Below are positions 4,701-55,535 of a DNA stretch of 64,000 nt, piece after piece (within the stretch, counting starts at the first letter, position 1; every line of letters starts with the position of its first letter). The translations under genes were made by a program, and so were the position numbers. Under the pieces are notes generated by a model that had not been told where the DNA came from, searched no databases, and was given only the letters and a program-made list of their open reading frames with translations. Source of the stretch: Terriglobus roseus (GTDB taxonomy: Bacteria; Acidobacteriota; Terriglobia; Terriglobales; Acidobacteriaceae); NCBI RefSeq assembly GCF_900105625.1, contig NZ_FNSD01000001.1, positions 1,612,001-1,676,000 on the forward strand, in the 5' to 3' direction.

Positions 4701-7278
4701 GCATACGCAGATGTTCTTTGCACTCCTCTTCGCTCTTGGATCCATCGGTCTCCTGCCGACTTCGCCCGCAGCGCAGAGCGGCAACGCTTCGGAGCTATCC
4801 GGACTCGTGACCGACAGGACTGGAGCAGCGCTTCCACGGACGAACGTGACGCTGCTTCAGCAATCGACGCAGGCCACGCGCATCGTCGTCTCGGACGCAG
4901 AGGGTAGATTTTCCTTTGCAGAACTTACTGCGGGTAAGTACCGCATCAGTGCCCAGGGCGGGGGCTTCGCAGCAGCCTCTGAGAGTTTGGATTACTCGGG
5001 CACACCACTGCAGGTCAACTTCCGCCTCGCTCCGGTAAGTACTGCCAGCAGCGTGGATGTCACCGCAGACGCGACCGCTCTCGACCCCACGGCGCCTGCC
5101 CGCGTCTCCATCACGCTCGAAGAGATCGAACGCATCCCCAGACAGAGCGTCAGTTCCCCGCTGAGCTCGCTCATCACCAACACCACACCCGGTGTCGCCG
5201 CAAACTCCAATGGCTCCTTTCATCCCTTGGGCGATCACGCGGAGGCCTCCTTCGTCATCGACGGCCAGCCCATCACCGATCAGCAGAGCCGCACCTTCTC
5301 CTCGCAGATCTCGCTCGACGCGCTTCAATCACTCGAGGTCCGCGTAGGCGCTCCGCAGGCCGATGTCGGCGACAAGACCAGCATGGTCATCGTGGCGCAT
5401 ACCAGATCGGGCCTCGATCAGAACCACCCCACCGGTGAGTTCTCCATTAGCCGCGGCAGCTTCAATTCAATTCAGGCAAGCGCGCGCGTGGGCTACGGCA
5501 CCGAACGTTTCGGAACCTTCACCGCCATCGACGCACTCAACAGCGGACGCTTCCTCGACACACCGGAACTCGTCCCATTGCATGCCAACGGCAATCTGGA
5601 AAATATCTTCCAGCGGCTCGACTATCGCCTCACCCCGCGAACATCACTGCAACTCAACGCCATCCTCAGTCACTCCTGGTTTCAGACACCCAACACCTAC
5701 GATCAACACGCAATGCGCCAGAACCAGCGACAGACAATCCAGAGCTTCAATATCGCGCCGTCGCTCATGCATACCTTCAACGCCGCGTCGTTCCTGCGTA
5801 CCAACCTGTGGGTGCGCCAGGACAAAGTACGCTACAGGCCTTCGACCGATACCTTCGCAGACACACCGGCTTACCTCGCACAATCGCGCCGTCTCATCAA
5901 CGCCGGCATCCGCTCGGAGTACAGCTACGCAAAGGGTAGGCACAACGTCACCGTCGGCGCGGAGTGGAAACACGCCTTCCTCGCAGAGCGCTTCGCAACC
6001 GGCCTCACAGACTCCATGTACAACAGTCCATGCCTCACAGCGGACGGCGCATCCTCTCCCGCCACATCGCTCACAGCAACGACGCAATGCACGAGCTTCG
6101 GCCTCACCGTCAATCCTGACTTCCTCCCAAACCTTCTCGCCAGCGACCTGACGCGCGGCGGCACCCTCTTCGCCTTCGCCGGTCAAACCGACATCAAGCA
6201 GGAGGCGGTCTTCGGCCAGGACAGTATTCAGCTCGGCAACTTCACCGCGAACCTCGGCCTTCGCTTCGACAAGTACAACGGCCTCACACGATCCACCGGT
6301 TTCCAGCCCAGGGTGGGCGTGGCCTACAACGCAACGCCACTCCGTACAGTCCTTCGCATGGGCTATTCGCGCGTCTTCATCACGCCGTATAACGAGAACC
6401 TCATCGTCGCCAGCTCCGCGGGCCCGGGATCAACCTCCGCAGCACTCGGGGCTGCGAACTCGGCACCGCTCGCGACCGGCCATCGCAATCAATTCAACAT
6501 CGGTAGCGAGTCGCAGCTCAGCAAGCACCTTACCCTCAGCAGCGAATACTTCTGGAAGTTCACCTACGGCGCCTATGACTTTGATGTCCTGCTCAACAGC
6601 CCACTGACCTTCCCCACGCAATTCCGTAAGTCGAAGATCGACGGTGGTCTTCTCCGGCTCAGCGTTGCACCCACTCACGGCCTCGCCGGCTACTTCACCG
6701 CGAGCCACGTTCGTTCGCGATTGTTTGGCCCGGAGACCGGTGGCGTCAGCTTCAACGCACCGTACAGCAACGTCACGCGGCCCGATCACGACCAGGGCCT
6801 TGCCACCAACACCTACGTCCGTTATCAACTCGGGCGTCGAGGCCCGTGGGCCGGCTTCTCATGGCGCTACGACGGCGGCCTCGTCTCCGTCGCCACGCCA
6901 GACGCCGCCTCCGTCCTACGCCTGACCGGGGATGAACAGGCGCAGATCGGCTTGCACTGCGGTTCGGTCTTCGCAGACGTAGGCCGACCCGTCCGCTCCT
7001 GCGCCGCTGGCAGTCTGCAGACCACGCGCATCCGCATCGCACCCGCCGGCACCGAAGACGATGACAGGAACCCCTCGCGCATCGCGCCCCGAAGCGTCTT
7101 CGACATCTCACTCGGAGAAGACGATCTTTACCACCACGAGCGGCAGCAGATCGGCATCCACGCCGACATCGTCAACCTCACCAACGAGGACGGCCTCTAC
7201 AACTTCCTCTCGACGTTTTCCGGAACGCACTTCCTGACACCGCGAGCCATCACCGTCCAACTGACCTACGCGTTCTGA
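4699..7278 (+). CDS. TonB-dependent outer-membrane receptor with carboxypeptidase-regulatory-like domain
   Basis: An outer-membrane barrel that takes up a ligand using TonB energy. A signal peptide (MFFALLFALGSIGLLPTSPAA) is followed by a CarboxypepD_reg-like beta domain at about residues 33-115 (SGLVTDRTGAALPRTNVTL, AEGRFSFAELTAGKYRI). A plug follows from about 125-240, then a long barrel ending in the aromatic sequence VQLTYAF. This is the acidobacterial Oar/TonB arrangement, although 859 residues is short for that group. The TTG at 4699 has AGGT about 9 bases upstream; the ATG at 4711 is the alternative and gives a cleaner signal peptide. The gene is preceded by two CTAAATT-type operators, suggesting metal control. 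Substrate unknown. Confidence 0.88.
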   Translation: MHTQMFFALLFALGSIGLLPTSPAAQSGNASELSGLVTDRTGAALPRTNVTLLQQSTQATRIVVSDAEGRFSFAELTAGKYRISAQGGGFAAASESLDYSGTPLQVNFRLAPVSTASSVDVTADATALDPTAPARVSITLEEIERIPRQSVSSPLSSLITNTTPGVAANSNGSFHPLGDHAEASFVIDGQPITDQQSRTFSSQISLDALQSLEVRVGAPQADVGDKTSMVIVAHTRSGLDQNHPTGEFSISRGSFNSIQASARVGYGTERFGTFTAIDALNSGRFLDTPELVPLHANGNLENIFQRLDYRLTPRTSLQLNAILSHSWFQTPNTYDQHAMRQNQRQTIQSFNIAPSLMHTFNAASFLRTNLWVRQDKVRYRPSTDTFADTPAYLAQSRRLINAGIRSEYSYAKGRHNVTVGAEWKHAFLAERFATGLTDSMYNSPCLTADGASSPATSLTATTQCTSFGLTVNPDFLPNLLASDLTRGGTLFAFAGQTDIKQEAVFGQDSIQLGNFTANLGLRFDKYNGLTRSTGFQPRVGVAYNATPLRTVLRMGYSRVFITPYNENLIVASSAGPGSTSAALGAANSAPLATGHRNQFNIGSESQLSKHLTLSSEYFWKFTYGAYDFDVLLNSPLTFPTQFRKSKIDGGLLRLSVAPTHGLAGYFTASHVRSRLFGPETGGVSFNAPYSNVTRPDHDQGLATNTYVRYQLGRRGPWAGFSWRYDGGLVSVATPDAASVLRLTGDEQAQIGLHCGSVFADVGRPVRSCAAGSLQTTRIRIAPAGTEDDDRNPSRIAPRSVFDISLGEDDLYHHERQQIGIHADIVNLTNEDGLYNFLSTFSGTHFLTPRAITVQLTYAF

Positions 7279-54254: not shown

Positions 54255-54878
54255 CTAAGCGTTGCGGCGCTTTGCCTTCAGCGTGAAGCCTACGGCAAGC
54301 AACAGTCCGCCGAGCAGGCCGTAGGTGGGCAGGTTGGTGCCCGAATCCGGCTGCTCCAGGTTGGGCTGCTGGTAGAAGGCAAGCTTGCCGCTGATCGCCG
54401 GCGCCTTCACGGCATTCATGGGGCGGTTGTCGCCGTCGGTACGAATGCTGACCAGCGTCAGTTCGACGGTATCGCCAACCTTGGTACCGGTGGGCACACC
54501 CTCGGCTACGGTGACTTCCTTCGACTCATCTTCAACCTTGACGACCATCTTATTCGGCGGCGACAGGCTGATGACCTTGGCCTTAACGACCGAAGCATCA
54601 TCGACCACCTTGCCGCCCGTGAGGCCTCCTGTGATGGTCATGCCGGGCTTCAGGCCCGAAACGGCTACGTCGCCGGCTGCTGTCTTGACCTTGTCACCGG
54701 CGCCCAGCATGTAGCCGTAGTCCAGCTCGTTCTTCATGTTCTTTACAACGACCTGTCCGCCGGAGACATAGACGACCGTCGCGGTGTCTTCAGCGTGGGC
54801 AGCGGCTGCAAGCAGCGGGAAGGCGACGGCAGCGGTGACGACAAGCTTGCGTGCGGAAACGGAAAACAGACGGCTCAT
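54255..54878 (-). CDS. exported protein with LPXTG-type sorting tail
   Basis: A 207-residue protein. The signal peptide (KLVVTAAVAFPLLAAAAHA) is followed by about 150 residues of beta-rich chain (TATVVYVSGGQVVVKNMKN, GDTVELTLVSIRTDGD). It ends in a tripartite sorting signal: LPTYG (183-187), a hydrophobic run LLGGLLLAVGFTL (188-200) and a basic tail KAKRRNA. This is the classical sortase substrate layout. Its ATG directly follows the stop of the sortase gene with GGAGAG just before it, so it is co-translated with its probable processing enzyme. The function of the anchored protein is unknown. Confidence 0.9.
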   Translation of the reverse strand: MSRLFSVSARKLVVTAAVAFPLLAAAAHAEDTATVVYVSGGQVVVKNMKNELDYGYMLGAGDKVKTAAGDVAVSGLKPGMTITGGLTGGKVVDDASVVKAKVISLSPPNKMVVKVEDESKEVTVAEGVPTGTKVGDTVELTLVSIRTDGDNRPMNAVKAPAISGKLAFYQQPNLEQPDSGTNLPTYGLLGGLLLAVGFTLKAKRRNA

Positions 54879-55535
54879 TTATCTCTCCAGATGGGGTGCG
54901 GCGGTGTTGGTCGAAACTTGTGAAGTCGAGAGCAGGGACGCACGCACGATGTACCGTTGCGGGGCCGGCCCGAGGTAGAAGAACGGATAGCAGGTGACCA
55001 GGGTCAGGACAGGCTTCGCGGTCGGCTGCAACGAGGCGACGTCGCTCGGCGAAACGATCTGCAGGCTGTCGACCTGATAGACGTTGTTCCCTTGTGTGGA
55101 GTTCACCTCGATGCGGTCGCCCACGTGCACATCTTTCAGGTGTCGGAAGTAGCCATCACGATGGCTTGCAAGGGCAACGTTCCCTGCACCACCCGGACTG
55201 GCTGTGCCCTCAATGTGTCCGGCGCCGAGATTCATCACCAGTTTCGAGGTGCCTTCCATGACCGGCACTTCGATCCCCACGCGGGGGATCCGCAGAACCG
55301 CCTCTGCAGGTGGTGCGGCAACCTTCAGTGCGTTGCGATACGCCGCCACGCGGCCCGGAGCCCAGGCAGTCGTCTCAGCGTGGTGTGCCTGAAAACGCGA
55401 CAGTACGACGTGCGAGAAGACCAAGCCGTAGACCGTCGGCACGCACCAGAACCCGAACAGCACGGTACCGGCCAGCAGGCAAAGCCGGCTGATCCACTGC
55501 GTCGTCGATGGGCTAACACTCTGCATGCGGGACAA
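54879..55535 (-). CDS. sortase
   Basis: A 218-residue membrane transpeptidase or cleavage enzyme. One N-terminal helix (RLCLLAGTVLFGFWCVPTVYG) anchors it. Catalytic residues are His125 in ALASHRDGYFRHL, Cys182 in LTLVTCYPFFY and Arg194 in PQRYIVRA, the sortase triad; TCYPF resembles class D sortases. RIPRVGIEVPVMEGTS is the usual first strand. The start is TTG 55535 with GGAG close by, or ATG 55526. The next gene, directly joined, encodes a protein with a matching LPTYG sorting tail. In a Gram-negative cell the final attachment site of such a protein is unclear. Confidence 0.93.
   Translation of the reverse strand: MSRMQSVSPSTTQWISRLCLLAGTVLFGFWCVPTVYGLVFSHVVLSRFQAHHAETTAWAPGRVAAYRNALKVAAPPAEAVLRIPRVGIEVPVMEGTSKLVMNLGAGHIEGTASPGGAGNVALASHRDGYFRHLKDVHVGDRIEVNSTQGNNVYQVDSLQIVSPSDVASLQPTAKPVLTLVTCYPFFYLGPAPQRYIVRASLLSTSQVSTNTAAPHLER

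What the first reader, a model, noticed from the sequence alone, without database searches (positions are those of the whole stretch)
54255..55535. Dedicated sortase and LPXTG-type substrate in one coupled operon in a Gram-negative
Seen directly: a sortase with His125, Cys182 and Arg194, followed without a gap by a protein ending LPTYG, a hydrophobic run and a basic tail. Known: this layout is the standard sortase-substrate pair of Gram-positive bacteria; single-target sortases occur in some Gram-negatives. Inference: in an acidobacterium the pair may anchor or release one surface or periplasmic protein by an unstudied route, as there is no thick peptidoglycan wall.
Basis: partly seen in the sequence, partly recalled or inferred. 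Interest (0 to 1): 0.78.

Follow-up and report, generated by a model that had tools for sequence, protein, structure and literature searches.

The report
Dedicated acidobacterial sortase with divergent signal
A soil bacterium of a Gram-negative phylum carries one protein-anchoring enzyme (a sortase) next to its single apparent target, and the expected cutting site on that target has drifted away from the usual LPxTG pattern.

Summary
On the minus strand a complete sortase (His125, Cys182, Arg194) is followed with zero gap by a secreted protein with a C-terminal hydrophobic stretch and basic end. The genome (a Terriglobus near T. roseus) shows one sortase and one such tail, so the pair looks dedicated. 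LPTYG is a second conserved box at the start of the hydrophobic stretch. The pair is not isolated: sortases occur in 73 of 200 family genomes and 59 of 297 phylum genomes; 80 of 98 sortase loci have a same-strand tail gene nearby. The window belongs to a five-member clade with [QEM]PDS[GA][TS]N signals, sister to LPEAGTN, grouped with canonical LPKT[GA] pairs. Best reading: a class-D-like sortase cuts at PDS|G and links the protein to an amine, probably meso-diaminopimelate of the thin peptidoglycan; cleavage and nucleophile are inferred. New variant of a known kind.

The parts
54879..55535 (-). Class-D-like sortase, 218 aa: N-terminal membrane segment (within residues 14-45), catalytic domain about 79-202 with H125, C182, R194
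   Evidence: Pfam PF04203 109.7 bits; best NCBIfam model NF058671 (SrtD, LPxTATN-specific) 127.9 bits, below its cut-off of 140; hydrophobicity
54255..54878 (-). Sortase substrate, 207 aa: signal peptide, two small beta modules, short linker, C-terminal sorting signal
   Evidence: Homologues next to the orthologous sortases; no Pfam match; AlphaFold2 mean pLDDT 65
54792..54878 (-). Substrate signal peptide (residues 1-29, ending AHA before ED)
   Evidence: Sequence; hydrophobic windows within residues 4-30; cleavage position judged by eye
54339..54353 (-). Predicted sortase site QPDSG (residues 176-180), homologous to LPxTG/LPxTA
   Evidence: NF058670 and TIGR01167 alignments (both scores below cut-off); homologue alignment, P177 invariant in 16 of 16; held-out profile aligns its P to P177
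54318..54332 (-).
   Evidence: P of this box kept in 78 of 80 tails; alignment A4
54258..54317 (-). Hydrophobic stretch and basic end (residues 188-207, ..KAKRRNA)
   Evidence: Sequence; helix 183-206 in the model; short: no 19-residue window here reaches mean hydropathy 1.5

Best explanation
A dedicated two-gene sorting cassette. The substrate is exported by Sec and held in the inner membrane by its C-terminal tail with its body in the periplasm. The adjacent membrane-anchored class-D-like sortase cuts the tail at PDS|G (PDS|A in Bryocella), forming a thioester through Cys182, and passes the protein to an amine, most likely the side-chain amine of meso-diaminopimelate in lipid II or peptidoglycan, so that a small two-module beta protein becomes fixed to the thin wall in the periplasm. 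Shown here by comparison: pairing, catalytic residues, register of the site, joint presence of enzyme and tail, and a site that differs between clades (LPKT[GA], LPEAG, [QEM]PDS[GA]). Inferred: actual cleavage, cut position, nucleophile and location. The function of the anchored protein is not known.
For: One sortase and one tail in the genome. Genus, 19 genomes: at E<=1e-3 tails were found in the 5 with a sortase, in equal number (1/1, 2/2, 1/1, 2/2, 2/2), and in none of the 14 without. Family, 200 genomes: sortase and tail 69, sortase only 4, tail only 3, neither 124 (not corrected for kinship). Of 17 substrate-family places with E<=1e-27, the 14 with a tail lie in sortase-bearing genomes; two without any tail lie in genomes where no sortase was found. 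QPDSG falls on LPKTG by homologues, two NCBIfam models and a held-out profile. P177, D178, S179 and N182 are invariant in 5 of 5 clade members whose substrates are as little as 45% identical to the window's, which speaks for selection rather than decay. Sortase tree: clade 100/98, with the LPEAG pair 100/98, within a group of 23 at 100/99. Class D precedent: B. anthracis SrtC cuts LPNTA between T and A and uses m-Dpm (PMC3297441, passages). A match over the cut-off of NF001126 (521 vs 373 bits) fits m-DAP peptidoglycan (that this model is the m-DAP-adding MurE is recalled; 8 of the 14 control genomes also pass).
Against: The sortase passes only the general sortase models (PF04203, TIGR01076) and is below the cut-off of every class model it matched. 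The site lacks the Leu and Thr that 70 and 55 of 80 tails keep. No experiment and no direct evidence of cleavage or of linkage to peptidoglycan. Co-occurrence is not corrected for phylogeny; the tail profile holds rows of three close clade members. The two genomes with tail-less homologues are 69% and 89% complete. One genome has a paralogue with a membrane tail but no LPxT (G116), so such a tail alone may be a plain membrane anchor. Four sortase-bearing genomes show no tail and three tail-bearing ones no sortase.
Confidence: 0.62

Rival explanations
1. The sortase acts mainly as a releasing protease: it cuts at PDS|G and water or a small amine resolves the thioester, so the protein becomes soluble in the periplasm.
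For: No thick wall in this kind of envelope (recalled); nothing in the locus names the nucleophile; tail-less, presumably soluble homologues exist in two genomes without a detected sortase.
Against: Sortases of the nearest characterised class are transpeptidases using m-Dpm (PMC3297441, passages). In a canonical homologue a mostly low-confidence, spacer-like region (within 183-233) precedes the site, as in anchored proteins.
Confidence: 0.2
2. One reading: the sortase recognises and cuts LPTYG, and QPDSG is only linker.
For: LPxxG is literally present; the P of this box is kept in 78 of 80 tails and G187 is invariant in 16 of 16 homologues.
Against: In the canonical relatives of alignment A4 LPxT[AGS] sits at the QPDSG position and the LPTYG position reads [LVIF][PS]L[IYLFV]G; P177 is also invariant in 16 of 16; two NCBIfam models and the held-out profile give the same register.
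Confidence: 0.08
3. Degraded pair: the signal is eroding after loss of the need for sorting, and the tail now works as a plain inner-membrane anchor.
For: L and T of the motif are lost; 25 of 80 tails from family sortase loci also lack T; the G116 paralogue keeps a membrane tail without the motif.
Against: Catalytic residues intact; P-D-S and N kept in 5 of 5; the two genes stay adjacent in 5 of 5 clade loci, although of 12 window genes only these two were found in the Bryocella and two other genus loci.
Confidence: 0.1

Closest known systems
Class D sortases (B. anthracis SrtC/SrtD, LPNTA; C. perfringens SrtD, LPQTGS; NCBIfam NF058671 'LPxTATN-specific')
   Same: The two class D models rank first; the best PDB sequence matches include 2ln7 and 4d70 (that these are the B. 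anthracis and C. perfringens class D structures is recalled); relatives L062 and L113 pass the NF058671 cut-off (149.2 and 141.4 vs 140). C. perfringens SrtD also lies in one operon with an LPQTGS protein (PMC4498605, passages).
   Different: Window sortase scores 127.9, below 140; host of a Gram-negative phylum; signal [QEM]PDS[GA] without L and T; substrate family without a Pfam match.
Class GN (TIGR03784) dedicated Gram-negative sortase with adjacent LPXTG target (vault/vWA-type protein)
   Same: One sortase with an adjacent target, the only LPXTG example of its genome, Gram-negative (PMC3237569, passages).
   Different: Window sortase scores 86.7 vs a cut-off of 158.25 for TIGR03784; the substrate here is a 207-aa protein with no Pfam match.
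Rhombosortase/GlyGly-CTERM and exosortase/PEP-CTERM pairs
   Same: Same logic: tripartite C-terminal signal and, for single-target rhombosortases, a neighbouring enzyme gene (PMC3237569, passages).
   Different: Unrelated enzymes and motifs.

Membership tests
Sortase superfamily (PF04203) | Sortase domain above gathering score | tested here: met
   109.7 vs 26.6 bits; TIGR01076 83.2 vs 39.35
Sortase superfamily (PF04203) | Catalytic His, Cys, Arg | tested here: met
   H125, C182, R194; conserved in 99, 99, 98 of 99
Sortase superfamily (PF04203) | Transpeptidase activity | not testable with these tools
   Needs an enzyme assay
Class D sortase (NF033746 / NF058671) | Score above curated cut-off | tested here: not met
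   116.9 vs 165 and 127.9 vs 140; two relatives of the same tree group pass NF058671
Class D sortase (NF033746 / NF058671) | Best match among class models | tested here: met
   NF058671, then NF033746, rank first for P0001
Class D sortase (NF033746 / NF058671) | Substrate signal of LPxTA/LPxTG type | tested here: not met
   Site reads QPDSG: L and T missing, P and G kept; NF058670 14.4 vs 32 bits, TIGR01167 12.1 vs 15.9
Class GN sortase (TIGR03784) | Score above curated cut-off | tested here: not met
   86.7 vs 158.25
Dedicated sorting system (one enzyme, one target) | One sortase and one sorting tail in the genome, genes adjacent | tested here: met
   profile-based, so a tail of an unknown type could be missed

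The most novel reading that the evidence does not exclude
A sortase lineage whose specificity moved, together with its only substrate, from LPxT[GA] to [QEM]PDS[GA][TS]N (acyl residue Ser instead of Thr, no Leu), freed from the usual motif because it serves one linked target, and which fixes that target to the thin peptidoglycan of a diderm.
Probability: 0.4. Interest if true: 0.62.

Novelty: new variant of a known kind. Interest (0 to 1): 0.45.

Why it matters
If true, covalent sortase anchoring is a regular trait in a large Gram-negative soil phylum (sortase in 59 of 297 genomes), and a set of naturally matched enzyme-signal pairs shows how sortase specificity changes. That would help both cell-envelope biology and the search for new peptide ligases. 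What a sortase does in an envelope with a thin wall is an open question; T. roseus DSM 18391, a named strain with the same pair, would allow a direct test.

Tried and rejected
LPTYG as the cleavage site: rejected by register. Many LPXTG proteins in the genome: not found. TIGR01167 and NF058670 searches of the own genome gave weak hits besides the substrate, two of them over the TIGR01167 cut-off (L019, L020); of the 12 others with a locus none has an LPxT motif followed by a C-terminal helix and basic end (L019 and L020 are internal; L022 has a C-terminal helix and basic end but no motif) (one search read minus-strand hits on the wrong strand and was redone). Five of the 13 TIGR01167 hits had no locus and were not read.

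Co-variation of sortase residue 97 (Ser in 7 of 7 with PDS or LPEAG signals, Asp in 15 of 16 of the rest of that tree group): not kept, because Ser97 also goes with canonical LPxTA signals in other groups.

Fold of the substrate: mean pLDDT 65 for the window protein and 69 for a canonical relative. Top PDB matches were a proteasomal ATPase OB-type domain (E=0.038, TM 0.23, rmsd 11.8) and ModE/ModG molybdate-binding domains (E=0.0027 at best, TM 0.17, rmsd about 20); too weak to claim a function. A profile search of PDB sequences found nothing under E=0.05. Promoter and terminator scan: none found. Plasmids: 466 records with a match, all under 60% identity. Phage families: two PHROGs of unknown function match the sortase, none the substrate.

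Literature: ten searches of the held open library, judged from listings and the passages named here, showed no study of acidobacterial sortases; most listed papers were not opened. Passages read: PMC3174227 (a table counting sortases in Solibacter), PMC7203096 (says a sortase is unknown in strictly negibacterial phyla), PMC1586193 (2006: sortase homologues outside posibacteria only in a few proteobacteria and Chloroflexus). Subscription papers could not be searched.

The last three printed summaries used a wrong index and are not used; only its position table is.

Full report
What is there. Two minus-strand genes, 55535..54879 and 54878..54255, touch end to start. The first is a complete sortase with one N-terminal membrane segment and His125, Cys182 and Arg194. 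The second is a 207-aa protein with a signal peptide and a C-terminal hydrophobic stretch with basic end. sucC-sucD converge on it from downstream and an adenosine deaminase gene diverges upstream (names mine, from the translations); in T. roseus the same genes surround the pair. The nearest named relative is T. roseus DSM 18391 (sortase 88%, substrate 94% identical), which the genome search places in the same genus (its contig is G004:C1).

Dedicated. The genome (4.8 Mb, 99.9% complete) has one match to the Pfam sortase model. A profile of 43 acidobacterial sorting tails, built without the window and T. roseus rows but with those of three close clade members, finds one tail in it at E<=0.1, this one (1.6e-9). 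In the 19 genomes of the genus the five with a sortase have as many tails as sortases at E<=1e-3; the 14 without have none at that level, the best being 0.009. One further hit in G016 (0.002) lies inside its reading frame, not at the end.

The motif is out of register in the finding. NF058670 (LPxTATN signal) aligns its positions 6-25 with residues 181-200, which puts positions 1-7 on QPDSGTN 176-182; TIGR01167 aligns its position 3 with P177. On canonical tails these models put the motif at the same positions (for example TIGR01167 position 1 at residue 230 of L089, one residue before LPKTG; NF058670 position 1 at the L of LPHTA in L117 and of LPKTA in L095). Both scores are below cut-off for the window protein. 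In the alignment of 16 substrates LPKT[GAS], LPET and LPEA stand in the columns of QPDS, and the columns of LPTYG read LPL[IYFLV]G with small changes. A profile of the 38 tails left after dropping each PDS or PEAGTN row finds the window tail at 1.1e-7 in the same register and no other of 180 window ORF ends under 0.8. Over 80 tails from family sortase loci the counts are L 70, P 78, x, T 55, [AG] 65, [ST] 72, x, L 61, P 78, L 71. From memory, the staphylococcal protein A signal has a second proline at the same spacing.

Setting in the phylum. Sortases occur in 73 of 200 genomes of the family and 59 of 297 of the phylum. I read the surroundings of 98 sortase loci (90, 7 of the genus, 1 of Bryocella). 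Of these, 80 have a gene with a tail on the same strand within 2.6 kb (the profile was built from a subset of the same loci, so this is not an independent test). At least three more (L070, L075, L100) have a tail on the opposite strand within 2 kb by the coordinates. Sortase and tail co-occur in 69 of 200 genomes, with 4 sortase only (G046, G088, G095, G191), 3 tail only (G058, G075, G090) and 124 neither (Fisher 1e-44, not corrected for kinship). Of 54 genomes with one sortase, 36 have exactly one tail, 15 more than one and 3 none: one-to-one is common, not universal.

History. In a tree of 99 sortases the window groups with T. roseus, Bryocella elongata and two further genus genomes, G016 (a Terriglobus MAG, L029) and G017 (100/98); their substrates carry QPDSG, QPDSG, EPDSA, MPDSG and MPDSG. 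The nearest pair, L062 and L085, carries LPEAG (joined at 100/98). Both lie in a group of 23 (100/99) in which nine more have a downstream substrate of the same family with LPKTG, LPKTA, LPKTS or LPETG. The root is a midpoint, so the direction of change, canonical to divergent, is inferred. The other seven of the 23 have no such downstream gene: L110 has an upstream tail protein not matched by the substrate profile, L070, L075 and L100 have a tail gene on the opposite strand, L120 and L123 have the substrate elsewhere in the genome, and for L098 none was found. Within the five, P, D, S and N of the site are invariant although substrates are as little as 45% identical to the window's. Of 12 window genes all were found around the pair in T. 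roseus, but only the pair itself in the loci held for Bryocella, G016 and G017, so the two genes stay together in different surroundings.

A natural control. Of 17 substrate-family places with E<=1e-27, 14 have the tail and lie in sortase-bearing genomes; two (G123, G173; 69% and 89% complete) end before the tail and lie in genomes without a detected sortase; one paralogue in G116 has a membrane tail without LPxT. One search scored at most 13 candidates per genome.

How it most likely works. Sec export, insertion of the tail, sortase attack at the PDS-G bond, thioester at Cys182, transfer to an amine. The amine is inferred to be m-DAP, from the class D precedent (PMC3297441, passages) and a MurE-type match over its model's cut-off. 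The result would be a periplasmic protein of two small beta modules fixed to the wall. Its role is unknown; structural matches are too weak to use.

Known or new. Dedicated Gram-negative sortase/LPXTG cassettes are in print for TIGR03784 (PMC3237569, passages), and class D sortases of Gram-positives with LPNTA or LPQTGS too (PMC3297441 and PMC4498605, passages). Here the enzyme ranks with class D but is below the cut-off of every class model it matched, the signal has lost L and T, and neither the window substrate nor the relatives scanned match a named family over its body in Pfam or NCBIfam; what passes there are LPXTG anchor models at the tail. I therefore call it a new variant of a known kind.

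Noticed in passing
L033:4566-6045, L034:5876-7395, L035:6657-8086, L036:6265-7237: Four Terriglobus-genus genomes carry another sortase type with an upstream substrate not matched by the window substrate profile, bearing LPHTAS, LPKTAG, LPQTGS or LPQTAS.
   Followed up: partly
L044, L046, L047, L050, L051, L057, L064, L068, L069, L072, L081: In a separate large sortase group upstream substrates have eroded motifs (LPxx[SGN][SG], Thr lost) but a similar membrane entry LPL[LI][SF][VI]IG; the motif Thr seems lost there independently.
   Followed up: partly
L168:1124-2056: Second copy of the substrate family in one genome (G116), with a membrane tail and basic end but no LPxT.
   Followed up: partly
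L171:3527-4294 and 7021-7266: Genome G124 has a tail-bearing substrate and a nearby short ORF with a nearly identical tail, on a contig other than those of its two sortases.
   Followed up: no
window 54255-54878 (model of the relative L113:2137-2913): Two tandem beta modules of the substrate family are predicted with fair confidence in the relative (pLDDT 84-91 by block); Foldseek points weakly to tandem OB-type folds such as ModE/ModG.
   Followed up: partly
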